Below the pieces are notes generated by a model. That model was not told the origin of the DNA, ran no database searches, and saw only the letters and a program-made list of their open reading frames with translations. Positions 32,752 to 47,630 of a stretch of DNA of 64,000 nt are shown here, in pieces. A program made the position numbers and the translations under genes. Every line of letters starts with the position of its first letter. Position 1 is the first letter of the stretch. Origin of the DNA: Prochlorococcus sp. AG-402-M23 (GTDB lineage: Bacteria; Cyanobacteriota; Cyanobacteriia; PCC-6307; Cyanobiaceae); contig QCIR01000006.1 of assembly GCA_003216575.1 (NCBI GenBank), positions 1-64,000 of the forward strand, read 5' to 3'.

Positions 32752-32937
32752 TTATTTCTTGTTTTTCCAGCCGAACATCTCAGCCATTTTTCTAGTTATA
32801 GCAAAGTATCCAATCGCTCCAAGGAACAACCCAAAAGCAATCAGATTGAGAATGATTCCACCAATGATCTGAGCTTCTCCAAAAGTCGGAAACGTAATCA
32901 CATCAAAAACCCTTGCCCAGTTATCCGGGAAATTCAT
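32752..32937 (-). CDS. 61-residue small membrane protein, IIGG/MAEMFGW family (copy B)
   Basis: Starts MNFPDNWARVFDVITFPTFG; a hydrophobic core, AQIIGGIILNLIAFGLFLGA, and the C-terminal motif KMAEMFGWKNKK define the family, which recurs at 42537-42722 and 45536-45682 and as remnants elsewhere in this window. One or two helices; no known function. Here it follows a frameshifted 43-residue partner gene. Confidence 0.75.
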   Translation of the reverse strand: MNFPDNWARVFDVITFPTFGEAQIIGGIILNLIAFGLFLGAIGYFAITRKMAEMFGWKNKK

Positions 32938-32956
32938 AATTCCTTCTTGATTGTTT

Positions 32957-33087
32957 TTAGATAAGACCTGAGAAGAAAAAATACCAAATAAAAACAATAG
33001 CGTTTAAGCCAAAAGTTGCTGAAATCTCAATGATTTTGAATTTTGTTCCAACATCATCTGAACCAGAATTAATTTCACGTAAGGCAT
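32957..33087 (-). pseudogene. Frameshifted copy of the 43-residue partner gene
   Basis: The segment aligns base for base with the intact gene at 42386-42517 but is 131 instead of 132 bp: one A is missing after ATGCCTTACGTGAAATTA, so the frame reads MPYVKLILVQMMLEQ and stops early. The rest still encodes GLNAIVFIWYFFFSGL in the correct frame. The mutated copy keeps its place 19 bp ahead of the 61-residue gene. Confidence 0.75.
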
Positions 33088-33127
33088 CGTTTTGATCTAA
33101 GGCTTCCCTGTGTGTGTTTTTTTTTCT

Positions 33128-34954: not shown

Positions 34955-35003
34955 GCCTGCTTTGGGAGCATTAGGTCGCAGGTTCGAAATCTGTCTCCCC
35001 GAT
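34955..35003 (+). pseudogene. Partial tRNA-Pro (3' part), possible attachment-site remnant
   Basis: CTGC-TTTGGGA-GCAT (anticodon loop with TGG), AGGTCGCAGGTTCGAA, then ATCTGTCTCCCCGA reproduces the anticodon-to-acceptor part of tRNA-Pro, with mismatches in the anticodon stem and T stem. There is no 5' half. A closely similar fragment lies on the other strand at 45781-45827 next to an intact integrase. A weak hairpin (GAGG...CCCTC plus TTTT) follows as an old terminator. Confidence 0.65.
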
Positions 35004-35017
35004 TAGTCAAAGAGAGG

Positions 35018-35107
35018 CTATTTTCCCCTCTTTTGATTATTCCTTTTAACCCTGCAAAGATCGCAGTTGTCTTTTTTGGGGATGGTGAAGGGAGTAAAGA
35101 GTTTCAT
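35018..35107 (-). CDS. 29-residue CxxC peptide, MKLFTPF family copy 1
   Basis: Starts MKLFTPFTIPKKDNCDLCR and ends KRNNQKRGK. A strong Shine-Dalgarno (GGAGG) precedes the ATG. Copies with the same 19-residue N-terminus occur at 38574-38699 and 43406-43558. The CDLC pair may bind metal or form a disulfide. Function unknown. Confidence 0.55.
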   Translation of the reverse strand: MKLFTPFTIPKKDNCDLCRVKRNNQKRGK

Positions 35108-35133
35108 AAAGCCTCCTTTCTTACACCTTTGGT

Positions 35134-35314
35134 CTAATCCTTCTTTTTATTGGATGGGAGTAGGGAAACACTACCCCAACCGAACATCAGGTCCGGAATA
35201 GTTCTTTTTAAAGTATCTTCAAGTTGATGGCGTGATACGGAAGCATCATCAAGCCAGATCGGGGGACGGTCGTCGAAATCCTGTCCTCTCTTCGCTAATT
35301 CAAAAAAAGTTCAT
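35134..35314 (-). pseudogene. Frameshifted small gene upstream of MKLFTPF copy 1
   Basis: MNF then, after a T7 homopolymer with one extra base, FELAKRGQDFDDRPPIWLDD and RHQLEDTLKRTIPDLMFG, ending PSNKKKD. Removing one T would give about 59 residues of plausible protein. The LMFG end and the following 27-bp spacer are conserved before copies 2 and 3 of the peptide, so this may be the ancestral upstream gene. A sequencing error in the T run is possible. Confidence 0.4.
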
Positions 35315-35330
35315 TAGGTCTGCACTTTTT

Positions 35331-35422
35331 GAGAACCCGAAGGGGTGGAATTTTCAGTCTGTTCCTTCAAATACTTCCTCACACAATTTTTAGAAAACCC
35401 TCTGAAGAGGGTTTTCTTTTTT
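35331..35422 (+). ncRNA. Candidate Yfr1-like small RNA
   Basis: A 5' hairpin ACCC-GAAG-GGGT (35335-35346) is followed by an AU-rich single strand carrying TCCTCACAC (35376-35384), and then by a perfect terminator stem AGAAAACCCTCT/AGAGGGTTTTCT with T6. Two hairpins flanking an unpaired UCCUCACAC is the architecture of cyanobacterial Yfr1. The core differs by one inserted T from ACUCCUCACAC and the genomic context (guaB-trxA) is absent, so this would be an extra or diverged copy. Confidence 0.4.
35392..35422 (+). terminator. Strong intrinsic terminator
   Basis: A 12-bp perfect stem AGAAAACCCTCT/AGAGGGTTTTCT around GA, followed by T6. It forms the 3' end of the candidate RNA at 35331. Confidence 0.85.
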
Positions 35423-35750
35423 GTATGACTTCAACTGATAAAGCAGCATTCGAAAGGAAGGCTTTTAATTTTCTTCCTTTCCCCTATATTGGGAAAATTA
35501 TATTTTCCGCTAAAATTTTATAAAATTTTTCAGAGCGCAGTTTTAAATAAGTATGTTCTTTAAAGAAGAAGATGTTGAGTGGTCATCTGTTTCGATTTGT
35601 AGAGCACGTTGGAACATTAGTAGAACTTACTCCATATATTTGAGCAATCTTTCTCCAGGTTCTATACCTCTTAGTAACTTTGCTTACAGCAAGAACATGA
35701 TTTGTATTAGTTCAGCTAGAAAGGGTTTATGTAGTACTCAGTAGATTTTT

Positions 35751-35972
35751 ATGGGAGAAGCAAAAAGACGAAAGGAACTTGGTTTACCTCCAAGAGAAAA
35801 ACAAGTTGAGTTAAAGTTGCCCGTCCTTGATAAACAAAATATCCAAAAAAAAGTTAGATCTTTTTTATATAAAAATCCAATTGTTCCATTTATTTTTTAT
35901 GGTCTTGTACTAGGTACGCTTGGTTGGGGTATATATAACCTTGTAAAAGGTTATCAACTGATTAATCCATAG
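35751..35972 (+). CDS. Small membrane protein, DUF2839-like
   Basis: 73 residues. N-terminal MGEAKRRKELGLPPREKQ is the cyanobacterial MGEAKRRK-type motif; one transmembrane helix spans about residues 44-62 (IVPFIFYGLVLGTLGWGIY). Function unknown. The assignment to DUF2839 rests on the N-terminus only. Confidence 0.7.
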   Translation: MGEAKRRKELGLPPREKQVELKLPVLDKQNIQKKVRSFLYKNPIVPFIFYGLVLGTLGWGIYNLVKGYQLINP

Positions 35973-36077
35973 ACCGCCACCTAGCAGTAGTAAAAAAAAC
36001 CAAAGAGAGATTCGCTTTCTACTTCATTACTTTCATATCTCAACTCATTAGATTTTTATAAGTGTAGTTTTTGGAAA

Positions 36078-36158
36078 ATGTTTACTGCATATCACGCAAT
36101 AATGTTCGTAGTTTTATTGATAGGTGGGGCTGGAGTTATCTTTCAGGCTTCCTCATGA
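36078..36158 (+). CDS. 26-residue hydrophobic peptide
   Basis: MFTAYHAIMFVVLLIGGAGV then IFQASS: a single helix with a short polar end. The size is typical of small photosystem-like subunits, but I cannot place it in a family. Confidence 0.35.
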   Translation: MFTAYHAIMFVVLLIGGAGVIFQASS

Positions 36159-36272
36159 GATGATTCTCTAGCAAATAATCCAATTCCATTTAAGGCTCCT
36201 GAATCAAAATTCGAATTAAACACTTATTCGGTCGACAGTCGATTTATCTTAAAGGTATTGGCCCCCATTCTT

Positions 36273-36569
36273 ATGGATCAAGAAACTACTTCAACTACTA
36301 CAGTCTTAGATACAAGGACAACAACAAAAAAATACCCAGAAGCAAGGATAATAATTCTTGATGATGATTTTAATACGTTTGAACATGTAGCAAATTGTCT
36401 TGTGGTAATCATCCCTGGGATGAGTGAAAAAAGATCATGGGTACTTGCCGTCGAAGTAGATAGGGAAGGTTTGGCGGAAGTATGGAGAGGTCCCCTTGAA
36501 CAGGCAGAGCTATATCATCAGCAATTAATCAGCAAAGGATTAACAATGGCACCAATTGAAAAAACATAA
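36273..36569 (+). CDS. clpS: ClpS-like adaptor of the Clp protease
   Basis: 98 residues from the ATG at 36273. ClpS delivers N-degron substrates to ClpA/ClpC. The core matches: ARIIILDDDFNTFEHVANCL (usual YNDDxNTxxxV), MSEKRSWVLAVEVDREGLAE, GPLEQAELYHQQL and GLTMAPIEK. The sequence after the NTFEHV motif has WV in place of the usual Ala, suggesting the ClpS2-like variant seen in cyanobacteria. Monocistronic. Confidence 0.82.
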   Translation: MDQETTSTTTVLDTRTTTKKYPEARIIILDDDFNTFEHVANCLVVIIPGMSEKRSWVLAVEVDREGLAEVWRGPLEQAELYHQQLISKGLTMAPIEKT

Positions 36570-36604
36570 AATTTCTTATCTATATAGAAACTCTCAGAAA
36601 AACA

Positions 36605-36838
36605 ATGAAAAAATTCTTCTCTTTTGCTCTTTGTCTTCTTTTGTTTCTTTGCCCTCGTGCAGCTCAAGCAGAATATGTTGAGCCAACGCCTCAAGAGGAA
36701 ATAGTTGAAGCACCTTCACCTGATCCAATGTCTGATGAGGCAATTAGATATTTACAAGGTGAGGACATGTATCAAGGCACTCTTAGTTGGCAAGGCTACA
36801 AAGCTTCTACCAAATTTAATTACGACATGAAAAAGTAA
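36605..36838 (+). CDS. Small secreted protein
   Basis: 77 residues: a signal peptide (MKKFFSFALCLLLFLCPRAA, cleaved after AQA), then an acidic Pro/Glu-rich region (PTPQEEIVEAPSPDPM) and an aromatic tail. Family not recognised. It is 9 bp ahead of the next gene. Confidence 0.6.
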   Translation: MKKFFSFALCLLLFLCPRAAQAEYVEPTPQEEIVEAPSPDPMSDEAIRYLQGEDMYQGTLSWQGYKASTKFNYDMKK

Positions 36839-36847
36839 AAAAGATAG

Positions 36848-37072
36848 ATGGCACTATTCGCAGTTTTAGTTCTCATTGGATTTGCCCTGTCTTTGTTATT
36901 TCCGAGGTGGAGAGTTTTTAATCACATGCTTGGATATGGTTTGATTTTTGCCTCAATACCTTTAGGGCTGAAATTCGCATCGGTGGCAGGGTTAAACCCA
37001 ATAGCAGTTTTCTTTATTTACGTAGCTGTCTTTTGGATTGTTTATTTCTTTATTTACAGAAGGAACCGTTAA
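36848..37072 (+). CDS. Small membrane protein with two to three helices
   Basis: 74 residues. Helices at about 2-16, 27-46 and 51-70, with the RRNR end likely cytoplasmic. No family recognised; probably cotranscribed with the secreted protein upstream. Confidence 0.6.
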   Translation: MALFAVLVLIGFALSLLFPRWRVFNHMLGYGLIFASIPLGLKFASVAGLNPIAVFFIYVAVFWIVYFFIYRRNR

Positions 37073-37118
37073 ACATCCAAAACTCATTAGGGTGATTTTA
37101 TTAGTAATTGATTTTTGA

Positions 37119-37307
37119 ATGCCTAGTCCTTTATTTGCAATACCTCTCAATATGGGAACAGGTACTTGGATTGTGACGATTGTTGCTGGACTAGGTTTTG
37201 TTGTGATGTTTGGTCTTGCCTCAGCAGGTGGAGACTATCAAGGTTTGATAAATACAACGCTTGAAAATGATGCACTTGCCCGTAAAAAGAGAAAGGGCAA
37301 AAAGTAG
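37119..37307 (+). CDS. 62-residue small membrane protein, copy 1 of two
   Basis: MPSPLFAIPLNMGTGTWIVT starts a single helix at about 15-36, followed by ASAGGDYQGLINTTLENDAL and a basic tail. It differs from the copy at 47436-47624 at only a few positions (IVT/VVT, GFVVM/SFIVM, RKKRK/REKRK). Function unknown; having copies inside and outside the putative element suggests recent transfer. Confidence 0.75.
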   Translation: MPSPLFAIPLNMGTGTWIVTIVAGLGFVVMFGLASAGGDYQGLINTTLENDALARKKRKGKK

Positions 37308-37461
37308 CTGCATGAAAACAACAAAGATCCCAAATGAAGAGAACCGATATTGATCTGATTATTCCAGAGGCTCAAGATTTGGAAAGATAATTACATATGG
37401 CATTGGTACAAAGCTCACCATTCTTGCTGGATTTCTTTTTTAAATGATGGCTAATTAAAAG

Positions 37462-37488
37462 AAAAAGGACTGAGCTAAGTCAGTCCTG
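37462..37488 (-). terminator. Intrinsic terminator of the DUF3303 gene
   Basis: On the minus strand AGGACTGACTT-AGC-TCAGTCCT is followed by T5. The stem sequence is nearly the same as those at 42179 and 44844, so this terminator belongs to the repeated module. Confidence 0.75.
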
Positions 37489-37532
37489 AGTGTTCATCTG
37501 AAAATGATTTCAACTATAGATAAGTCAATTAC

Positions 37533-37838
37533 TTAAGATGCGTAGATTTTTTTCGCAGTAGTAACAAATTGCTCGTCCGAGAACACAGCCTCTACTTCGC
37601 ACATACATCCAAAACCTTTTATCCAAGGAGCAGCGTGTTCCCACATCTTGCTGATATCAGTTGCTTCAGCGACGAAGCTACCTGTTCCATTAAGTGGGTT
37701 GGTTACACGCCAAAGAATTTTAAAACCATCAGTTTCGTCAGCTGGGCCACCAGCTTCTAGATATTCAAGAAATTTTTCGCCTCCTGCAAATGATGATTCC
37801 TGAGTAGGAAATGCCCAGTCAAGTTTAAAAAGAGCCAT
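37533..37838 (-). CDS. DUF3303 family protein
   Basis: 101 residues from the ATG at 37838, chosen over an upstream extension with no support. Conserved: MALFKLDWAFPTQESSFAGG, FLEYLEAGGPAD, FKILWRVTNPLNGTGSFVAE and WIKGFGCMCEVEAVFSD. A ferredoxin-like small protein family of unknown function in marine cyanobacteria and phages. Confidence 0.75.
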   Translation of the reverse strand: MALFKLDWAFPTQESSFAGGEKFLEYLEAGGPADETDGFKILWRVTNPLNGTGSFVAEATDISKMWEHAAPWIKGFGCMCEVEAVFSDEQFVTTAKKIYAS

Positions 37839-38022
37839 TGAAGAAAAATATATTTGAATTTGATTTTTAACGAAAATGGATATAAAAAATGCAAAAAGTC
37901 TTCCAATTAACATCGAGTAACTTTTGAGGTAGCCTTCCGACGGATGAATTTGTGTAGTATTTTCCGTCAACTATATTCTTATCTTCTGTGAGAATATTTA
38001 GTGAAGTTTTTTAGTGATAATT

Positions 38023-38184
38023 ATGGATGCTCCCATTCAACACATAAATTTATTCAATGCAATGCTTGCTTTATATGTAATTGGTTATCAAATAACCATT
38101 TGCGTTGATTGGAGTTGGATTCCTATGAATAAAGAGGATTACCAACTTCCATATCAAGATAAATGGAGTGTTAATCAACAATGA
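38023..38184 (+). CDS. Small membrane-associated hypothetical protein
   Basis: 53 residues (MDAPIQHINLFNAMLALYVI...). One helix at about 9-28, then DWSWIPMNKEDYQLPYQDK. Its stop overlaps the next ATG (ATGA). Confidence 0.5.
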   Translation: MDAPIQHINLFNAMLALYVIGYQITICVDWSWIPMNKEDYQLPYQDKWSVNQQ

Positions 38185-38333
38185 TTCCTGATATTTTTAA
38201 TCAAACAGCAGCTGAATCAAAACAATTTGGCATTTGGGTTCCTGTGATAGGAGTCATTATTGTTTTTTTAGGAATGAATATGAGAGTTGAAATTAAAATC
38301 CAGAAAGAAGAAGAATTTGATAATGAGGATTGA
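38181..38333 (+). CDS. Small membrane protein
   Basis: 50 residues, translationally coupled to the gene before. One helix at about 17-36 (FGIWVPVIGVIIVFLGMNMR), then a charged tail KIQKEEEFDNED. Confidence 0.5.
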   Translation: MIPDIFNQTAAESKQFGIWVPVIGVIIVFLGMNMRVEIKIQKEEEFDNED

Positions 38334-38388
38334 CAAAGTCATTTCATTCCTGTGTTTTCGATAGCAATCGGCGGTCAAACGGTGAGGA

Positions 38389-38433
38389 CTAATATGATTT
38401 GGGCCGTTTTCTAATACCAAACATCTCAGCCAT
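38389..38433 (-). pseudogene. Remnant of the MAEMFGW small membrane protein family
   Basis: The frame reads MAEMFGIRKRPKSY before a stop; MAEMFG is the C-terminal family motif of the genes at 32752, 42537 and 45536. The rest is missing. It lies next to a reversed, degenerate copy of the repeat element at 42149 (CCGATTGCTATCG around 38358-38374). Confidence 0.45.
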
Positions 38434-38573
38434 TAACAAAATGAAAACCTTCATATTAGGGGAAGCTTCCTTATGCTTAACCTGAGCTAGCAGAGCTAAG
38501 TCTTAACTTAATAGTTTGATTTTAGCCTTTCACCTGAAGAACGCGGTTGGTCGAATACGAAATCGAATATTTG

Positions 38574-38699
38574 CTAGTAGAGGTTTTTAAATAGTCGATC
38601 TATGAATGGATTCTCAACTACTTTTTGCTTATTCTTTTCGAGCCTGCAAAGATCGCAGTTGTCTGTTAGAGGAATGGTGAAAGGAGTAAAGAGTTTCAT
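38574..38699 (-). CDS. 41-residue CxxC peptide, MKLFTPF family copy 2
   Basis: Starts MKLFTPFTIPLTDNCDLCR and ends FIDRLFKNLY. Shine-Dalgarno AAGGAGG lies upstream. N-terminus and leader are almost identical to copies at 35018 and 43406; the C-terminal part corresponds to VENPFLDQLFKFLY of copy 3. Confidence 0.6.
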   Translation of the reverse strand: MKLFTPFTIPLTDNCDLCRLEKNKQKVVENPFIDRLFKNLY

Positions 38700-38870
38700 A
38701 AGTCCTCCTTGCGACACCTTTGGTCTACTCCTTTTTTTAGTAAAAAGAGGGTAGGAAAGCCCTACCTCAACCGAACATCAGTAGTAGAAGATTAGTTTTT
38801 ATCTTTACATCATTGGTGACAGGAATGTTCAACCCTTGTATCACCGAAACCTTTTCAACCTCTACTTGCT

Positions 38871-38981
38871 ATGACTTCAATCAATAATTCTTCAGCAGCT
38901 AAGTTCCTAGCTCTTTTCTGTATACCTGCGCTACTACTTGCATCAGGTTCTTTTGATGTTGCTACTTCAGTAATCGCGTAG
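38871..38981 (+). CDS. 36-residue hydrophobic peptide, paralogue of 28366-28476
   Basis: MTSINNSSAAKFLALFCIPA followed by LLLASGSFDVATSVIA. Matches the other copy over AAKxLxLFxxPAxLLLAxxxF and has the same length. Probably one inner-membrane helix. Confidence 0.6.
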   Translation: MTSINNSSAAKFLALFCIPALLLASGSFDVATSVIA

Positions 38982-38991
38982 GACTAGAAAA

Positions 38992-39117
38992 ATGGACATA
39001 AATCCTTTTAAGCCGTTAATTCAACATTGTGCAGATTTCTACGGAAAAATACTTTCCGTAAAAGAGCCACTAAACAATCTTTATTTAAAACTACGACTAA
39101 GCAAAGCCAATGCTTAA
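38992..39117 (+). CDS. 41-residue hypothetical peptide
   Basis: MDINPFKPLIQHCADFYGKI..., soluble and basic. It begins 11 bp after the 36-residue peptide and is followed 6 bp later by another. Coding status is uncertain. Confidence 0.35.
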   Translation: MDINPFKPLIQHCADFYGKILSVKEPLNNLYLKLRLSKANA

Positions 39118-39122
39118 AACAT

Positions 39123-39230
39123 ATGTACGGAATTAACGAAGCAACAATCATTGCAAGCTTGGCTGTCCCCGCTGGGTTGTTCATTGGTTTTTCAACAATC
39201 CTAGTTAATAGACTTCGCCAGTGCATGTAA
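39123..39230 (+). CDS. 35-residue single-helix peptide
   Basis: MYGINEATIIASLAVPAGLF, then IGFSTILVNRLRQCM. One hydrophobic helix with positive end. The stop TAA overlaps the next ATG (TAATG). Confidence 0.5.
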   Translation: MYGINEATIIASLAVPAGLFIGFSTILVNRLRQCM

Positions 39231-39328
39231 TGCCTACATCTACTCCAGATAAATCGAATAATAAATTTTGGTTCGGATTGGGTGAATTAATTGGTCAACT
39301 TTTGTTTGATTTTTACGCTCGTTACTAG
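39230..39328 (+). CDS. 32-residue hypothetical peptide
   Basis: MPTSTPDKSNNKFWFGLGEL, then IGQLLFDFYARY. Starts in the TAATG overlap with the gene before, which supports translation. Confidence 0.45.
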   Translation: MPTSTPDKSNNKFWFGLGELIGQLLFDFYARY

Positions 39329-39410
39329 TCAATACTTCATTCCCTGCCTGTTTAAAATAAATAATCAAAACTAATCTGCCAGAGCTGGGAGATGTTCGTC
39401 TCTTTATACC

Positions 39411-39488
39411 ACCTGTTTAGATTGTTTAGGTTGTTTAGGTTGTTTAGGATTTATCTAAGGTAAACAAGGTAAAAAATGATAAACAGGT
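39411..39488. repeat. Four 9-bp tandem repeats flanked by an inverted repeat
   Basis: The unit TGTTTAGRT occurs four times in a row (39414-39449), and the outer arms ACCTGTTTA (39411-39419) and TAAACAGGT (39480-39488) are inverted copies. The pattern resembles iterons or a protein-binding array. It lies downstream of the foreign peptide deformylase gene. Confidence 0.75.
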
Positions 39489-39591
39489 ACTTATTTAATA
39501 CAAGAACTAATGTCTGATTGAACTAGATCAGCTAGTAAGGGAGGATGACACGCTTTCTACTTTCACCTTTACTAAAGCAAAAATATGAGGT

Positions 39592-40125
39592 TTAAGGAAT
39601 CCGTCCATGAGCCTGAAGCTCATCCGTAAATCCAAAAGCTAGTGGACTGGTAAGACGGTCAGGGAAAAGCACACCATCCAAATGATCATTTTCATGCTGC
39701 ACGACTCGTGCTTGAAAATCTTGCAACTCTTCTGAATGGAAAGCACCTTCTCGGTCTTGCCATTTGAGGTGAATACGTTGCCAACGCTTCACCTCACCGC
39801 GCAAACCAGGCACACTAAGACATCCCTCCCAACCAGTGATTAAGTTATTCCCAATTGCTTTGATGACAGGATTGATCAGTACACGTTCTGGCAAAGGATC
39901 TGCATTGGGGTATCGAGGGTTATGCCCCATTCCGATAACGAAAATCCTCCAAGGTTCATCGATCTGCGGTGACGCCAGCCCTGCTCCAGAACAAGCCGAT
40001 TTTGTATCGAACAGATCGTCTATTAGCTGCTGTAGACGTTCACTGCCGAACCAGCCATCAGGGACTTCTGTCGCACATTTGCGCAATGCCGGATGACCAA
40101 TTCGAAGAACATTCCGAATCCCCAT
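39592..40125 (-). CDS. def: Peptide deformylase, acquired-looking copy
   Basis: 177 residues from the ATG at 40125 (MGIRNVLRIGHPALRK). PDF removes the N-formyl group from nascent peptides using a metal. All three motifs are present: SGAGLASPQI (G-x-G-L-A-x-x-Q, with Ser for Ala), WEGCLSVPG (EGCLS; metal Cys) and QHENDHLDG (HExDH; metal ligands). Base composition is unlike the surroundings: 31 of 60 bases in 39601-39660 are G or C. It could be a transferred or phage-derived second copy; a housekeeping def is expected elsewhere. Confidence 0.88.
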   Translation of the reverse strand: MGIRNVLRIGHPALRKCATEVPDGWFGSERLQQLIDDLFDTKSACSGAGLASPQIDEPWRIFVIGMGHNPRYPNADPLPERVLINPVIKAIGNNLITGWEGCLSVPGLRGEVKRWQRIHLKWQDREGAFHSEELQDFQARVVQHENDHLDGVLFPDRLTSPLAFGFTDELQAHGRIP

Positions 40126-40198
40126 ATGCCAATCATACCTACAGTAAAAGCCTACCTTGATCAAGCCCAGATGATCACATTAGTTTTGAAAAATACTT

Positions 40199-40327
40199 TT
40201 GTCAGAAGAGCCTGAAGAGATAAGCTTCCGTCTGGAAAATCTAGAAGATTTATGCAAACTATATGATGTTGAATTTGATTTGAGATACGATTACTTACAA
40301 AGGCTTGATGATAGGTATAAGAAGTAA
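40199..40327 (+). CDS. Small acidic protein coupled to the nuclease gene
   Basis: 42 residues from a TTG (MSEEPEEISFRLENLEDLCK...). Charged and helical; its stop abuts the ATG of the gene at 40328. Could be an accessory or antitoxin-like partner; this is inference from position only. Confidence 0.4.
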   Translation: MSEEPEEISFRLENLEDLCKLYDVEFDLRYDYLQRLDDRYKK

Positions 40328-41236
40328 ATGAAGATAGATTTCTTAAAGCAATTCATAAGGCAAACCAAAACTGGCAGCTTGAAGACAAAGGAGTATCCCA
40401 GAGAGTTTTTGGACTTAAATATGAAGGTTTCCTTTGGACAAGGGGCTTTAGCTCATGTCCCATGGGTCGCTCTGAATGCCCCAGATATGCCTGTAAGCAG
40501 TGGTTATTACCCTGTTTATCTTTTTTATAAAGAACAAAACATATTAATTCTTACTTATGGAATAAGTGAAACGAACGTACCTGAAAAAAGTTGGACGCGA
40601 AATATTCACGAAAGCAAAACTAAAATTTCGAACTTTATTCAGAATCCTTTTCGATATGGTGATTCTTTTGTTCATAGTCACTATCAGCCAAAAGTCGAAG
40701 GTGATGAAGTTGTCTTTTATAGAGAAAATCAAAAAATCTCTGATGAAATTATTTGTAGTGAGCTTTTGGATTTGGTGAATTTCTACAAAAGCTGCCTTGA
40801 TCTTGACGTGAAAGATGAAACTTCCTCTATTAGCAGTGGATTATTTTATTTAGAGAGCCAACTAGAAGATTTTTTAATTGAAAATTGGAATGAAACAGAT
40901 TTTGGAAAAAAATATGAGCTGATATTTGAATCAGGAGAGTTGAAGAGTCAACAATATAGAACTGATATTGGAAGGATAGATATCCTTGCAAAAAAGAAGG
41001 CTGACAACTCATATGTAGTTATCGAGTTAAAAAGAAATCAGACTAGTGACGATACTGTTGGGCAAGTAACGAGATATATGGGTTGGGTTCAAGAAAAATT
41101 TGGAGACAATAATGTCTGCGGTGTAATTGTTGCGGGGAAATATGATGAAAAACTTTATTACGCCCAAAAGATGCTTAAGAATATTGAGGTTTTTCTCTAT
41201 GAAGTGAATTTCAAATTGAATGCATATAAAAAATAA
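40328..41236 (+). CDS. MrcB-like domain fused to a NucS-type PDDEXK nuclease
   Basis: 302 residues. Residues about 40-150 resemble the MrcB N-terminal domain (PWVALN...GYYPVYLFYKE...LTYG), which in restriction systems recognises modified bases. The C-terminal half is a restriction-like nuclease: Glu180 in LESQLEDFL, Asp218 in DIGRIDILA, E233-L-K235 in VVIELKRN, and GQVTRYMGWV. The arrangement suggests a single-polypeptide, modification-dependent (type IV-like) restriction enzyme. Recognition of modified DNA is inference; family members vary. It follows a small coupled gene and precedes a membrane protein. Confidence 0.7.
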   Translation: MKIDFLKQFIRQTKTGSLKTKEYPREFLDLNMKVSFGQGALAHVPWVALNAPDMPVSSGYYPVYLFYKEQNILILTYGISETNVPEKSWTRNIHESKTKISNFIQNPFRYGDSFVHSHYQPKVEGDEVVFYRENQKISDEIICSELLDLVNFYKSCLDLDVKDETSSISSGLFYLESQLEDFLIENWNETDFGKKYELIFESGELKSQQYRTDIGRIDILAKKKADNSYVVIELKRNQTSDDTVGQVTRYMGWVQEKFGDNNVCGVIVAGKYDEKLYYAQKMLKNIEVFLYEVNFKLNAYKK

Positions 41237-41284
41237 AGTAGTTTGGTTGTTGTATAGCTGGACTGTTAAAAGGAGACTTTGGTG

Positions 41285-41674
41285 ATGAGCCGCTTGACTA
41301 ATAAGAAGACACTAAAAGAAATTCTTGCACCCTATGACAGACAGATAAGAAAAGATATGAGCTTTTGGATAAAGTATCGACCATCTCGTTGGGGAGATTT
41401 GCTACCTGAAGAATTTATAAGAGCTTTACTGACATTTATCAAGACGAAAGGTGGTAAGAAATTTGTATTGATATTGGCTTTTCTTTTAAGCTTGATATTT
41501 GTTGGAGTTATACCAACTTTAAATTTTATCTGGTCAAATATTTTCAGGCTTTGGTGGATTCTCCTTGTTATTCCATTGGTTTATTGGACATTAGCAATTA
41601 CTTCCGTCTATTCAAGGGTCCTCGTTCAGGGAGTTTTTGAATTTTCACGAGCTGTGTTAAGAGAATTAAAATGA
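41285..41674 (+). CDS. Small membrane protein with two helices
   Basis: About 129 residues from the ATG at 41285, preceded by AAGGAG. Two helices at about 58-76 (KFVLILAFLLSLIFVGVI) and 87-110. The N-terminal 50 residues are basic and probably cytoplasmic. Family not recognised. Its stop overlaps the next gene's ATG. Confidence 0.55.
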   Translation: MSRLTNKKTLKEILAPYDRQIRKDMSFWIKYRPSRWGDLLPEEFIRALLTFIKTKGGKKFVLILAFLLSLIFVGVIPTLNFIWSNIFRLWWILLVIPLVYWTLAITSVYSRVLVQGVFEFSRAVLRELK

Positions 41675-42110
41675 AACGCTTCTTCCTTGTTGCTCTAACC
41701 GCTGTACCCTAACGGCATGTTCTAGTGAAACAAAAGATCCTAAGTATTTATGTGTGATAAATAGAGTAGAAAGAGCTCAGCAATTAAGAGCTGAAAAGTC
41801 ATTACCTCGTGATGGGAAAAGGTTTGATTTAGATAAAATTACAAATGAGGAATGGGAGAATTACCTTTTGATAGAGAAAAAAGCGGAACAAAATTGGGTA
41901 GACATATTTGTAGCGATGGGAGGCAACAGAAAAGAACTCCAGGAAGAAATGGAATTTCAGAATAAATTGACTCAACTTACAAGAAATAAGAAGCCAATTT
42001 CTGAAGAATTAATAGATAAATTAGTTAATGACTCAAAAGGTGCATTTGATAGGATCCAATCGGCAAAAGTCTTCTACAAAGGTTACGGTGTTGACTTAGA
42101 TGACTATTGA
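41671..42110 (+). pseudogene. Lipoprotein-like gene with a frameshift in the signal peptide
   Basis: From the ATG at 41671 the frame reads MKRFFLVALTAVP and stops at 41710. Adding one base near 41707 lets it continue LTACSSETKDPKY into the long downstream frame (118 residues from GTG 41754, VINRVERAQQLRAEKS...). L-T-A-C is a good lipobox, so the ancestral product was a lipoprotein of about 145 residues. The mature part is charged and helical, unknown family. A sequencing error is possible. Confidence 0.55.
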
Positions 42111-42148
42111 GATAAGTTTTTTTAGCTTATATTGCTTAAATAAAGAAG

Positions 42149-42202
42149 GTTGACAGCCGATTGCTATCGGAACCAGTGGGACTGACTTAGGTCAGTCCTT
42201 TT
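42149..42202 (+). repeat. Repeated 55-nt module with terminator, copy 1
   Basis: GGTTGACAGCCGATTGCTATCGG then AACCAG, followed by the terminator hairpin GGACTGAC-TTAG-GTCAGTCC and TTTT (42179-42202). A second copy at 44813-44868 is nearly identical, and a reversed degenerate copy is near 38358. The stem itself also occurs at 37462. Could be a small RNA or a mobile terminator unit. Confidence 0.7.
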
Positions 42203-42231
42203 GGAATATTCATTTACGGGAAGAAGGATTA

Positions 42232-42393
42232 ATGGTTCCAATTTTCGCAACTTCTACAAAAGCAAACCTACTGATTTATTTAGGTGGTGGTGGTTTTGTT
42301 TTACTTGGAGCTTTTTACTTTGGTCGTCTGGTTACATTCTTTTTCCCAAAAAATCCATTAATTAGAAAAGGGAAGGGGGAGAACGATGCCTGA
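42232..42393 (+). CDS. Small membrane protein
   Basis: 53 residues with an AAGGATTA ribosome site. One helix at about 14-32 (LIYLGGGGFVLLGAFYFG) and a second hydrophobic stretch, then a basic tail. Overlaps the 43-residue gene by 8 bp. Family not recognised. Confidence 0.55.
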   Translation: MVPIFATSTKANLLIYLGGGGFVLLGAFYFGRLVTFFFPKNPLIRKGKGENDA

Positions 42394-42517
42394 TGTGAAA
42401 TTAAATTCTGGTTCAGATGATGTTGGGATGAAATTCAAGATCATCGGAATTTCAGTGACCTTTGGCTTAAACGCTATTGTTTTTATTTGGTATTTCTTCT
42501 TCTCAGGTCTTACCTAA
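42386..42517 (+). CDS. 43-residue small membrane protein, intact copy
   Basis: MPDVKLNSGSDDVGMKFKII then GISVTFGLNAIVFIWYFFFS and GLT. One transmembrane helix at residues about 20-40. Frameshifted copies sit at 29382 and 32957. It precedes its partner 61-residue gene by 19 bp, the same spacing as at the 32957 locus. Confidence 0.7.
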   Translation: MPDVKLNSGSDDVGMKFKIIGISVTFGLNAIVFIWYFFFSGLT

Positions 42518-42536
42518 AAAGAATCATGAGGGAAGA

Positions 42537-42722
42537 ATGAACTTCGCTGATAACTGGGCAAGGGTTTTTGTTGTGATTACGTTTCTGACTTTTGGAGAAG
42601 CTCAAATCATTGGTGGCATTGTTCCCAATCTGATTGCTTTTGGTTTGTTTCTTGGAGCGATTGGATACTTTGCATCAATGGGAAAAATGGCTGAAATGTT
42701 CGGCTGGGAAAGCAGGAATTGA
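42537..42722 (+). CDS. 61-residue small membrane protein, IIGG/MAEMFGW family (copy C)
   Basis: Starts MNFADNWARVFVVITFLTFG; core AQIIGGIVPNLIAFGLFLGA, end KMAEMFGWESRN. Most similar to copy B at 32752. Preceded by GAGGGAAGA. Probably membrane-embedded with two helices; function unknown. Confidence 0.75.
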   Translation: MNFADNWARVFVVITFLTFGEAQIIGGIVPNLIAFGLFLGAIGYFASMGKMAEMFGWESRN

Positions 42723-42802
42723 CAGGTACAGAAGTTATGGCTGGGCCTGGTGCAAGATTTCAAAAATCTATGGAGTTAGCCTTAGTACTATTAGTCGATT
42801 GT

Positions 42803-42934
42803 CTATGGCTTAGAAAGTTTAGTGATAGCCTTATCAGACTTTTTTAAAATTTTTAGAGCCTCTTTTCTTGAAGTACAAGCATCCGCTTTAGCTTGAAGTT
42901 TTAAAAGTTTGGCGTGTTGTTTCTCTAAGTTCAT
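42803..42934 (-). CDS. 43-residue Lys-rich peptide
   Basis: MNLEKQHAKLLKLQAKADAC then TSRKEALKILKKSDKAITKL and SKP: a basic amphipathic helix. Soluble; family not recognised. No clear terminator for it. Confidence 0.5.
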   Translation of the reverse strand: MNLEKQHAKLLKLQAKADACTSRKEALKILKKSDKAITKLSKP

Positions 42935-43405
42935 CCAACATTAGATAAAAACGAAGACGACAAACTAACAACTTTAGGCCCTAATCGAGGAAAGCCGACT
43001 CGTAAGGTTCTCTAATTTGTATATTTTGAATTTTTGCAATAGAAAACCCCTTTTTTTAAGAAGGGGTTTTCTAACTTTAATAGTTACTTAAAGCTCCAAA
43101 TGGGAGTTTCGAAGTGAATGATTAAGCCCGGTATGTAGTAGGAAATGCAGAGCTTAGATTTGTTTATCAAGGAAATCGGAGGACTACCTTTAATAAATTT
43201 GCGAACAAAGGGACAGGATTTCACCGACTGTCCCCTTCTCTGACTAGAGCTTGAACGCAACGTGTCTTTAGTAGAAGTTACTCGCTCTTGCGTGAATAGA
43301 ATATAAAAAGAATTTCTTTAAAACTGATGTTCGGTTGAGGTAGGGCTTTCCTACTCCCTTCTTACTAAAAAAAGGAGTAGACCAAAGGTGTCGCAAGGAG
43401 GGCTT
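42935..43405. other. Noncoding stretch with hairpins and MKLFTPF leader
   Basis: No supported gene. It holds a palindrome at 43041-43072 and a hairpin GGGACAG/CTGTCCC at about 43209-43235. The last 80 bp are the conserved leader of MKLFTPF copy 3. Confidence 0.6.
43041..43072. terminator. Long palindromic hairpin, terminator-like
   Basis: AGAAAACCCC/GGGGTTTTCT around a T-rich 12-base loop. Neither flank has a clean T tract and no gene ends just before it, so its role and strand are uncertain. The stem resembles that at 35392. Confidence 0.4.
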
Positions 43406-43558
43406 ATGAAACTCTTTACTCCTTTCACCATTCCTCAAAAAGATAACTGCGATCTTTGCAGGGGTAAAACTAATAAAAGAAGAGAAGTTGAGAATCCATT
43501 TTTAGATCAATTATTTAAATTCCTCTACAGGGATAAGTTTGATTTCGTGTTCGACTGA
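43406..43558 (+). CDS. 50-residue CxxC peptide, MKLFTPF family copy 3
   Basis: Starts MKLFTPFTIPQKDNCDLCR, then NKRREVENPFLDQLFKFLY and RDKFDFVFD. Excellent Shine-Dalgarno AAGGAGG six bases before the ATG. Longest of three copies with a shared leader and N-terminus. Confidence 0.65.
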   Translation: MKLFTPFTIPQKDNCDLCRGKTNKRREVENPFLDQLFKFLYRDKFDFVFD

Positions 43559-43640
43559 CCTTGGTCTATAAAAATGAGGGATATTCGAGGCCAAACAATA
43601 ATTAATGTTCTATGGACACTGCAGTAAAGGAGGATTTGCA

Positions 43641-44168
43641 ATGCGTTTAAATTTTGTTCCTACTCATGTTTTCCGTGAGACGCCTCAAGTATCGTTCTTC
43701 GATGCGGGAGTAAAAGGATCCAATGGATCTGATGTCGTAATTCATCACGGCAATGCCATCTCACCTCCAAACGATGGAGATTTTGAAAAGTATTACGTAC
43801 ATCGACATCAAATTGATCACAATTTAGTAATTGAAGGTAGTCGTATTTTTACTTTGATCAATCCAGAATGGGATGAACCTCATCACATTATTTATTTAAA
43901 TCGTGCGATGGGCGCACTTCAAATTCCTGTCGGAACATATCATCGATCAATTTCTAATAAAGAAGGAAGTATTGTTCTAAACCAAGCCGTAAGAGATGAA
44001 AAATTTAATCCTGAAAATGAATTTATACCAGTTAGTTTAAGAGACAGAAAAGATCTGCAAGAAGCTCAAAAGAAAAATCCTGTTTACTGGGTTTGGGAAA
44101 AAGATCAAATCAAAAGGATTAAGTTTGAGCCAATTCAAGCTAGAGAAAAAATTTCTTGTTCGGATTAA
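43641..44168 (+). CDS. Cupin-like small-molecule or sugar-binding protein
   Basis: 175 residues from the ATG at 43641 (preceded by AAAGGAGG). The cupin core shows HRHQIDHNLVIEGSRIFTLI (metal-His motif, H-x-H-x-x-x) and, after a 25-residue spacer, IYLNRAMGALQIPVGTYHRS. A single cupin domain; enzymatic role cannot be assigned. Probably stands alone. Confidence 0.72.
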   Translation: MRLNFVPTHVFRETPQVSFFDAGVKGSNGSDVVIHHGNAISPPNDGDFEKYYVHRHQIDHNLVIEGSRIFTLINPEWDEPHHIIYLNRAMGALQIPVGTYHRSISNKEGSIVLNQAVRDEKFNPENEFIPVSLRDRKDLQEAQKKNPVYWVWEKDQIKRIKFEPIQAREKISCSD

Positions 44169-44969: not shown

Positions 44970-45134
44970 ATGAAGCTAAGAACTCCATTTTCTTTAATCA
45001 AAAATGCTTTGAGTGATATTCGAGTAATGCATGATTTCAATTACGAAATTCCTGCAGAAACCAGAGAAGAGTTTTGGAAAGAAGAATGTGAGGTCCACCC
45101 AACTTCTTCAACATGCAAAGTTTATGACGACTAA
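44970..45134 (+). CDS. CP12-like small protein (C-terminal CP12 motif)
   Basis: 54 residues, preceded by the strong site AAAGGAGG. The C-terminus reads REEFWKEECEVHPTSSTCKVYDD-like: two Cys eight residues apart with VYDD at the end, the pattern of the GAPDH-binding end of CP12. The N-terminal Cys pair of full CP12 is absent. CP12 locks GAPDH and PRK of the Calvin cycle in the dark; cyanophages also carry it. A role in carbon-flux control is inference. The start MKLRTPF resembles the MKLFTPF peptides. Confidence 0.5.
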   Translation: MKLRTPFSLIKNALSDIRVMHDFNYEIPAETREEFWKEECEVHPTSSTCKVYDD

Positions 45135-45744: not shown

Positions 45745-45772
45745 TAAAAAAGACAGGCTGCGAAACCTGTCT
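45745..45772 (-). terminator. Terminator downstream of the tRNA-Pro fragment
   Basis: On the minus strand AGACAGG...CCTGTCT is followed by T6. It lies 8 bp beyond the tRNA-Pro 3' end and was probably the original tRNA terminator. Confidence 0.75.
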
Positions 45773-45780
45773 CTGACTGA

Positions 45781-45827
45781 TCGGGGCGACAGGATTCGAA
45801 CCTGCGACCTAGTGCTCCCAAAGCACT
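45781..45827 (-). pseudogene. Partial tRNA-Pro (3' part), candidate attachment site
   Basis: AGTGC-TTTGGGA-GCACT (anticodon TGG), AGGTC, GCAGG-TTCGAAT-CCTGT and CGCCCCGA form the anticodon arm, T arm and acceptor 3' strand. The acceptor 5' strand and D arm are missing; the sequence toward the integrase is unrelated. This is what remains when an element integrates in the tRNA gene. Confidence 0.8.
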
Positions 45828-45927
45828 TTTTCAGCCCTTTGAGGCACTTGGTCAACAGGCATACCAATTGATATGAAAAGGTCTGTCATTTTCTGTCTGG
45901 TCAGTTTAAGCTATATTTGTTGGCTAT

Positions 45928-47175
45928 TTGTTGGCTCTTTTGAGTAAAGATTGGGAACCGATCGCACGAAAACAAATAAAGGGACTGAGTCCTGAAAGTG
46001 GCCTGACGACAAATAAATCCAAGCGTGGAATGGTCGAGCTTCGCCTAAGGAAACCAGGTCTTAAGCCCGAATCCGTTATTCTGCCTTTCAAATGGGCAGA
46101 AGAAAATTGGGGAGATGCTTATTCAAGAGCAAGAAATATATTTGTTTTCCTTAAAAAAGGTCACTCACTTAAAGCCGCAGCGGAAATGGCCGCAGGCAAA
46201 GCCCCAAAGAAACCAAAAGATTGGAGAAAAATATTAGAGAGCTTTAAAGATCAAAAGATTAATTTTGGAACTGCTATAAGCGAAGCAACATTCAACAAGC
46301 AATATCTTCCACCATGCCAAATGGTGGTCGAAGTCATGAGCAAAAAAAATCCACCAACTAATCCAAGAGATCTAATCGATATTTGCGTAAAAGATTGGAA
46401 GCCTGAAAGTGTCTCTCGAAAACATAGAACAAGAGCGATCAAACAGTTCTTAGATCATGCAGTAAATAGAGAAGGCATTGCCGACATATGGAAACCTCCA
46501 GCAGATTTAAAGCAACATATAGGGAAAGCTAAACCTAAAGATATTGTCAATCAAAAAGCCGCTGCATTTGAAAGTGATGTCCAAATATTAGATTTCTTAG
46601 AGACATTGCCAACTGATAGTCCCTATCAAAAAGATGCAGAAGCCGCTACAAATTGGTTCAACTGTTTTTGCCTAATGGCGGAACTAGGTCTAAGACCAAT
46701 CGAAGTTAATTACTTACAAGTATTGTTTGATCCAATTTCTAAAGAGCATTATTGGCATTGCACGTACATCAAGAAAGCTGGTAATGGAGCGACAGAGCCA
46801 AGACGAATCGAACCGCTACCATTGATTTATCGAGATGGAAAAGAAATTCAATGGAATCTTCTTGAAAGGTTTAGAAGTAATCTTTTACCCTTACCGGAAA
46901 GGGTTGATGGTGAAGCTGCTGGGACATATTTAAAACGTCGACCGAGTTGGAAAGATTTAAAAGAAGTCATGAGAAAAACCCAGGGAGCCAATATCACCTG
47001 TTATTCATTTCGGCATTATTACGCTCTTCGTTGTCACCTAAATCGCATTGACTCTGGAAGTGCCTCTCGAAGCATGGGACATTCAATAGAAGCTCACCAT
47101 AGAAATTATCCATATTCAAAAGAATCAACTACGACTAATGCTTTTAAGTTGGCAAGAGAGAGGATGACCAAGTGA
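45928..47175 (+). CDS. Tyrosine recombinase (integrase) of the putative element
   Basis: 415 residues from a TTG. It cuts and joins DNA at attachment sites via a 3'-phosphotyrosyl link. The core-binding region is near residues 120-200. Catalytic signs: Arg I in LGLRPIEVNYL (about 252), the box II Arg in CYSFRHYYALR (His of HxxR replaced by Tyr), MGHSIEAHHRNY with His and the nucleophile Tyr. The promoter region carries the 11-bp direct repeat ATTTGTTGGCT (45914-45935). It starts 101 bp from the tRNA-Pro fragment and runs away from it. The stop overlaps a zinc-finger gene. Confidence 0.9.
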   Translation: MLALLSKDWEPIARKQIKGLSPESGLTTNKSKRGMVELRLRKPGLKPESVILPFKWAEENWGDAYSRARNIFVFLKKGHSLKAAAEMAAGKAPKKPKDWRKILESFKDQKINFGTAISEATFNKQYLPPCQMVVEVMSKKNPPTNPRDLIDICVKDWKPESVSRKHRTRAIKQFLDHAVNREGIADIWKPPADLKQHIGKAKPKDIVNQKAAAFESDVQILDFLETLPTDSPYQKDAEAATNWFNCFCLMAELGLRPIEVNYLQVLFDPISKEHYWHCTYIKKAGNGATEPRRIEPLPLIYRDGKEIQWNLLERFRSNLLPLPERVDGEAAGTYLKRRPSWKDLKEVMRKTQGANITCYSFRHYYALRCHLNRIDSGSASRSMGHSIEAHHRNYPYSKESTTTNAFKLARERMTK

Positions 47176-47411: not shown

Positions 47412-47435
47412 GATCTTTTTATTGATAAATTTCTA

Positions 47436-47624
47436 ATGCCTTCTCCATTATTTGCAATCCCTCTCAATATGGGGACAGGGACATGGGTTGTGACGATTAT
47501 CGCGGGCTTAAGTTTTATTGTTATGTTTGGCCTTGCCTCAGCAGGCGGAGACTATCAAGGTTTGATAAATACAACTCTAGAAAATGATGCACTTGCTCGA
47601 GAAAAAAGGAAGGGGAAAAAATAA
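47436..47624 (+). CDS. 62-residue small membrane protein, copy 2 of two
   Basis: MPSPLFAIPLNMGTGTWVVT, helix at about 15-36, then ASAGGDYQGLINTTLENDAL and a basic tail. Nearly identical to 37119-37307. It is the first cargo gene of the element. Confidence 0.75.
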   Translation: MPSPLFAIPLNMGTGTWVVTIIAGLSFIVMFGLASAGGDYQGLINTTLENDALAREKRKGKK

Positions 47625-47630
47625 CTTAAG

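What the first reader, a model, noticed from the sequence alone, without database searches (positions are those of the whole stretch)
35018..43558. Three-copy family of CxxC peptides starting MKLFTPFTIP with a conserved leader
Copies at 35018, 38574 and 43406 share 10 residues exactly, the DNCDLCR motif, a strong Shine-Dalgarno, and about 80 bp of upstream DNA including a GTAGG/CCTAC hairpin and an LMFG-coding end. Conservation of the upstream DNA together with differing C-termini (29, 41, 50 residues) argues that the leader or N-terminus is what is selected.
Basis: partly seen in the sequence, partly recalled or inferred. Interest (0 to 1): 0.65.

Follow-up and report, generated by a model that had tools for sequence, protein, structure and literature searches.

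The report
MKLxTPF small-protein family of Prochlorococcus
The three look-alike mini-genes are members of a large, undescribed family of very small Prochlorococcus proteins that share their first seven to ten amino acids and differ afterwards; the shared start is preserved as protein, while most of the conserved upstream DNA is promoter-like sequence that many other small genes in the same island also carry.

Summary
In detail: three copies (29, 41, 50 aa) with matching upstream DNA at the stated places. It is more than a three-copy curiosity. Leader plus ORF recur in 37 of 41 genomes of the host genus (LLI-type Prochlorococcus), often several per genome. Codons 1-24 evolve under protein-level constraint (pS 0.48, pN 0.10), while decayed copies do not. 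Two forms recur: a 50-aa form, also constrained in its tail, and a 28-29-aa form whose last codons are the 5' arm of an intrinsic terminator. The 41-aa window copy is a 50-aa form cut by a TAG. The family belongs to a wider Prochlorococcus set sharing the N-terminus M[KR]LxTPFx[IV] (24 of 59 sampled genera), including a 54-aa near pan-Prochlorococcus protein with a copy at 44970-45134. CxxC is not shared by the set, so it is not the defining feature. The upstream DNA is two pieces: the family's own ~65-nt leader, with a GTAG/CTAC dyad, and a separate promoter-like block found beside Yfr13 and many other small genes. My mechanism, an N-terminal docking motif with exchangeable tails, is inference.

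The parts
35018..35107 (-). copy 1, short form, 29 aa MKLFTPFTIPKKDNCDLCRVKRNNQKRGK
   Evidence: short form recurs (25 distinct copies)
38574..38699 (-). copy 2, 41 aa: long form cut by a TAG at codon 42
43406..43558 (+). copy 3, intact long form, 50 aa
35160..35174 (-). dyad GTAG-N7-CTAC of copy 1
38751..38765 (-). dyad GTAG-N7-CTAC of copy 2
43340..43354 (+). dyad GTAG-N7-CTAC of copy 3
43378..43383 (+). TAGACC, 23 nt after the dyad in 54 of 62 copies; candidate -10 (unproven)
43396..43401 (+). Shine-Dalgarno AGGAGG of copy 3
35112..35117 (-). Shine-Dalgarno AGGAGG of copy 1
38704..38709 (-). Shine-Dalgarno AGGAGG of copy 2
35012..35030 (-). weak terminator hairpin overlapping the end of the copy 1 ORF
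   Evidence: -6.7 kcal/mol; stronger in most other short forms
43300..43351 (.). block L1 (TATAAAAAGAA..TGATGTTCGGTTGAGGTAGGGCTTTCC) upstream of copy 3; promoter-like towards the left, shared with other genes
38754..38805 (.). block L1 upstream of copy 2, facing the small gene at 38871-38981
35163..35212 (.). block L1 upstream of copy 1
44970..45134 (+). 54-aa relative sharing only the N-terminal signature (subfamily E), MKLRTPFSLIKNALSDIRVMHDFNYEIPAETREEFWKEECEVHPTSSTCKVYDD
43635..44168 (+). gene downstream of copy 3, recurrent partner of the long form; cyanophage 'hn/hemagglutinin' family
   Evidence: (14 of 72 regions)

Best explanation
These are real, translated micro-protein genes of a Prochlorococcus-specific family. 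Shown by sequence: (1) the first ~24 codons, above all MKLxTPF[ST]I, are conserved as protein; (2) the same N-terminus heads at least five small-protein subfamilies with different tails; (3) each gene in the window's subfamily is a compact unit: dyad, fixed 23-nt spacer, TAGACC, strong SD, ORF, and in the short form a terminator built into the last codons; (4) the unit has been copied several times per genome in a hypervariable island and joined to many neighbours. Inferred mechanism: the N-terminal MKLxTPF stretch is a docking motif for a common partner, and the tail (a basic, partly helical segment here, a CP12-C-terminus-like segment in subfamily E) decides what is delivered to or blocked at that partner. 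I put about 0.9 on 'translated, selected protein family', about 0.3 on N-terminal docking as the mechanism, and about 0.5 on the dyad being a protein-binding or hairpin element that controls expression.
For: Presence in 37/41 genus genomes. pN/pS: intact copies 0.134/0.514; decayed copies 0.424/0.552; other frames show no excess of synonymous change except the antisense frame that mirrors third positions. Third-position heterozygosity 0.30 against 0.11/0.13. Signature pattern in 37/41 genus genomes with 0 control hits, and 0/41 for a T-P swapped pattern; HL genus 21/41; 24 of 59 family genera. Profile comparisons: window subfamily A vs HL subfamily D over 41 columns, E 1.1e-6; A vs B/C over 32 columns, E 1.1e-13; A vs E only columns 1-14, E 3.4e-5. 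Terminator-like hairpins at short-form ends in most of 25 copies. Fixed dyad-TAGACC spacing against variable TAGACC-ATG spacing. Mosaic neighbours. A phage relative of E is an annotated gene in P-TIM68.
Against: No expression or protein data seen. pN/pS pools non-independent pairs and selects intact ORFs; the trend survives dropping the selected codons (0.161/0.499). About 34 of 87 located copies lack an ATG or have an unusual length, so turnover is high. AlphaFold gives no confident fold (pLDDT 61.5). No binding partner is known. The A-E link rests on 14 residues. TAGACC is a poor -10.
Confidence: 0.55

Rival explanations
1. RNA first: the transcript is a regulatory or dual-function RNA whose leader hairpin and start region act by pairing; the peptide is secondary.
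For: GTAG/CTAC hairpin kept in 52/56 with one double compensation; HL relatives have GGGTA-N4-TACCC at the same distance, -53 from the ATG; short form is a compact unit with its own terminator; Yfr13 sits on the same shared block.
Against: Synonymous sites in codons 1-24 vary freely; no excess folding stability; second helix not conserved; about half of HL copies lack the hairpin.
Confidence: 0.2
2. Dyad as DNA operator: GTAG-N7-CTAC is bound by a dimeric activator centred near -43, in the geometry of NtcA-type class II promoters, so the 'leader' is mostly promoter.
For: Dyad-to-TAGACC spacing fixed at 23 nt in 54/62 while the SD side tolerates indels; the canonical NtcA site is GTAN8TAC centred near -41.5 (abstract of PMC3898017, listed); one class of copies diverges from a glutamine-II riboswitch gene.
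Against: Spacing here is GTA-N9-TAC, not N8; TAGACC does not match TANNNT; no TSS data.
Confidence: 0.35
3. CxxC metal-binding or redox micro-protein: two CxxC peptides share one zinc or disulfide.
For: NCDLCR nearly invariant in subfamily A.
Against: Cysteines are replaced in HL subfamily D (EMDLIR), reduced to one in B (ELCR) and absent in C (ALPK), although D and B/C align over 41 and 32 columns.
Confidence: 0.15
4. Leader peptide or attenuator for the downstream gene (43635-44168).
For: The long form precedes this gene in 14 of 72 regions examined.
Against: Most copies have other downstream neighbours or a terminator; tail and N-terminus are conserved as protein.
Confidence: 0.07
5. Selfish or merely repetitive DNA spread by recombination at the shared 12-bp core GTAG[GT]GCTNNCC, with no function for the host.
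For: 203 distinct core sites join at least 10 left and 17 right flank clusters in many combinations; many decayed copies.
Against: Purifying selection on intact ORFs; no Y1 transposase in the genus; the HL subfamily is conserved without this core.
Confidence: 0.1

Closest known systems
Multi-copy small genes of Prochlorococcus islands (e.g. hli genes)
   Same: many short, variable-copy genes in islands; hli genes lie near the same type of core
   Different: no sequence similarity to HLIPs; different N-terminal motif
RiPP precursors with conserved leader peptide and variable core (prochlorosins)
   Same: shared N-terminus, divergent C-terminus, several per genome, Prochlorococcus
   Different: conserved part is only ~10 residues; no LanM-type or other modifying enzyme seen beside the copies; no family match
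CP12 (CP12-C type), for subfamily E only
   Same: C-x3-[HN]-P-x4-C-[KR]-x-Y end, as in CP12 peptides 3b1j_C and 3zdf_C
   Different: E-values 0.6-0.8 only, no Pfam CP12 match, broader profile finds nothing; unrelated N-terminus
Yfr13 (RF02364)
   Same: lies on the same upstream block in LLI genomes
   Different: a non-coding RNA; only the upstream block is shared, not the transcript

Membership tests
MKLxTPF family (as defined here) | N-terminal M[KR]LxTPFx[IVM] at an ATG of a small ORF | tested here: met
   swapped control 0
MKLxTPF family (as defined here) | protein-level constraint | tested here: met
   (subfamily A only)
CP12 | match to CP12 models or solved CP12 chains | tested here: not met
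   no PF02672 match; PDB CP12 peptides only at E 0.6-0.8
CP12 | C-terminal cysteine pair (subfamily E only) | tested here: met
   C40 and C49 invariant in A8; the copies of the finding lack it
RiPP precursor | modification enzyme encoded nearby | tested here: inconclusive
   none recognised among the recurring neighbour families; no dedicated search for such enzymes was made
NtcA-activated promoter | GTAN8TAC about 22 nt before TANNNT | tested here: not met
   N9 spacing and TAGACC; geometry similar
Known RNA family (Rfam 15) | gathering-score match at the copies | tested here: not met
REP/RAYT element | Y1 transposase in the genome | tested here: not met
   PF01797 in 0/41 genus genomes
Cyanophage-borne gene | copies of the window subfamily in phage genomes | tested here: not met

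The most novel reading that the evidence does not exclude
Prochlorococcus uses one short N-terminal tag, MKLxTPF, as a common docking motif for a set of small regulatory proteins with exchangeable tails, one of which (subfamily E, also carried by a cyanophage) mimics the GAPDH-binding end of CP12; the LLI clade has amplified tagged proteins in its island under a shared promoter block.
Probability: 0.15. Interest if true: 0.75.

Novelty: new member of a known kind. Interest (0 to 1): 0.45.

Why it matters
Prochlorococcus has few protein regulators, and much of its island content is tiny genes of unknown function. A lineage-wide N-terminal signature that links at least five such families, including a 54-aa protein found in most sampled Prochlorococcus genera and in a cyanophage, gives a concrete handle: one tag, several tails, testable by pull-down. 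It also warns that 'conserved leader' DNA in these islands may be a shared promoter block rather than an RNA element.

Tried and rejected
Rfam at gathering and E-value levels: nothing at the copies. RNA structure: RNAalifold on 56 leaders finds only the 4-bp hairpin at -1.5 kcal/mol; alternative SD-sequestering and ORF helices are kept in only 8-16 of 56. LMFG as a coding end: rejected. REP/RAYT: rejected. Phage origin of the window subfamily: no hits. Site-specific cassette joint: the combinatorial flanks suggest it, but most cases are also explained by a leftward promoter block whose upstream side is free to vary; no recombinase or empty-site pair was shown. NtcA: spacing off by one. Pfam, NCBIfam, PHROGs, PADLOC for the ORF: none. 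AlphaFold: low confidence. One MAG contig labelled Alteromonadaceae (L101) carries the short form with Prochlorococcus-like flanks and is probably mis-binned.
Full report
1. Observation. They align over 160-256 bp at 80-84% identity, leader included. The upstream 20-mer occurs three times in the window against 0.01 expected. A fourth, decayed copy lies on another contig of the same genome (C9:44553).

2. Spread. The 163-bp leader-plus-ORF query hits 37 of 41 genomes of the GTDB genus, often several times. One of them, G002, has 1,842,899 bases, which from my own knowledge is the NATL2A genome, so I take the genus to be the LLI clade. With a single sequence the protein is confined to this genus apart from one weak hit.

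3. Coding. In copies with an intact start, codons 1-24 have pS 0.48 and pN 0.10; codons 1-12 have 0.50 and 0.05. Without selecting on the FTIP residues the values are 0.514 and 0.134, and copies that lost the start or carry early stops have 0.552 and 0.424. Shifted frames show no such contrast; one antisense frame does, because it mirrors the third positions. So the N-terminus is selected as protein, and its synonymous sites vary. The 50-aa tail is also constrained (codons 36-50: 0.483 and 0.115). These are pooled pairwise counts and overstate independence.

4. Forms. Of 87 located copies, 27 are 50 aa and 26 are 28-29 aa. The short form ends ...NNQKRGK, and in most of 25 copies its last codons form the 5' arm of an intrinsic terminator such as GAAGAGGGGCAAATAGCCTCTCTTTTTT. 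The long form usually lacks one and often precedes a 175-aa gene (14 of 72 regions), which in the window belongs to a cyanophage 'hn/hemagglutinin' family. The 41-aa window copy is a long form with a TAG at codon 42. So the different C-termini are two classes plus truncations.

5. The upstream DNA. Alignment of 56 leaders shows that the family's own leader begins at GTAG, about 67 nt before the ATG, and is preceded by three unrelated blocks. One of them, L1 (TATAAAAAGAA..TGATGTTCGGTTGAG), occurs next to many other right-hand flanks; 203 distinct cores GTAG[GT]GCTNNCC join at least 10 left and 17 right clusters. The right-hand partners include the sRNA Yfr13 (RF02364), ends of other small genes, and in variant form the hli operon. 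One left-hand block belongs to a divergent gene with a glutamine-II riboswitch. The core with its CGGTT box is found in 20 of 24 genus genomes sampled and in none of 276 others. L1 looks like a promoter facing left: an AT-rich TTTTTATATT lies at constant distance from the core. That is inference from layout.

6. Dyad or hairpin. GTAG-N7-CTAC is complete in 52 of 56 leaders, with one double compensatory change. The distance to TAGACC is 23 nt in 54 of 62 copies, while the distance from TAGACC to the ATG varies. HL relatives have a GGGTA-N4-TACCC-type hairpin ending 53-54 nt before the ATG in 12 of 31 copies. Both a DNA operator and an RNA hairpin fit. Folding energies are ordinary, and the other helices are not maintained.

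7. The wider family. The pattern M[KR]LxTPFx[IVM] at an ATG occurs in 37 of 41 genus genomes with no control hits; a version with T and P swapped occurs in none. It occurs in 21 of 41 HL genomes and in 24 of 59 sampled genera of the family, nearly all with small, Prochlorococcus-like genomes. The proteins fall into subfamilies: A (window, NCDLCR); B, 35 aa (MTELCRIQKAAKKK); C, 30 aa (MTALPKRKNKA); D, 49 aa, HL (EMDLIRDAMKNRR); E, 54 aa, in most sampled Prochlorococcus genera (EC-x-x-HPTKSTCKLYEV), with a window copy at 44970-45134 and a phage homologue in P-TIM68. A aligns with D over 41 columns (E 1.1e-6) and with B/C over 32 (E 1.1e-13), but with E only over the first 14 (E 3.4e-5). The CxxC is therefore a feature of A only.

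8. Mechanism. A short N-terminus that is kept while tails change is best read as a contact site for a common partner (inferred, about 0.3). Subfamily E ends like the C-terminal loop of CP12, but the statistical support is poor, so this is a lead. For A I can only say: a small, basic, probably helical tail (low confidence).

9. Known or new. No Pfam, NCBIfam, PHROG or PADLOC family covers A, and no paper found in the held library describes it; the search was limited and the supplements of PMC7368042 were not available. I file it as a new lineage-specific small-protein family, a known kind of thing in these islands, with an unusual shared N-terminus.

Noticed in passing
window 44970-45134 +: 54-aa member of subfamily E (MKLRTPF...HPTSSTCKVYDD), in most sampled Prochlorococcus genera and in phage P-TIM68; C-terminus resembles CP12.
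   Followed up: partly
L1 block: window 43300-43351, 38754-38805, 35163-35212; many loci: Genus-specific promoter-like block with a 12-bp core, combined with many different flanks (Yfr13, 3' ends of small genes; variants beside hli); could be an island regulon operator or a recombination joint.
   Followed up: partly
window 43300->43045 and 35210->35420: Candidate leftward transcripts from L1 carrying a GGGACAG..CTGTCCC-type hairpin and ending at a terminator-like hairpin; no Rfam match in the window.
   Followed up: no
window 34958-35017 and 45766-45825: Inverted, degenerate copies that look like the 3' half of tRNA-Pro (45781-45838 scores 29.6 bits as tRNA), with further copies elsewhere in the genome; possible attachment-site remnants bounding the island segment.
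   Followed up: partly
window 45928-47175 +: 415-aa ORF whose C-terminus (FRHYYA..MGHSIEAHHRNY) looks like a tyrosine recombinase, but without a Pfam or PHROG match.
   Followed up: no
window 40328-41236 +: 302-aa protein matching PADLOC candidate defence family PDC-S02 (E 1.6e-43, C-terminal part only).
   Followed up: no
window 43511-43594 -; other long-form loci: The tail of the long form lies antisense to the end of a small convergent ORF (..EIKSIPVxxFK); in the overlap the constraint is on the MKLF frame.
   Followed up: partly
window 37094-37309 / 47412-47626 and 32756-33091 / 42382-42718: Duplicated small genes within the window (83-88% identity).
   Followed up: no
L101 (CAJYAI010000077.1): Contig labelled Alteromonadaceae MAG that starts with a short-form copy and Prochlorococcus-like sequence; likely mis-binned.
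   Followed up: partly
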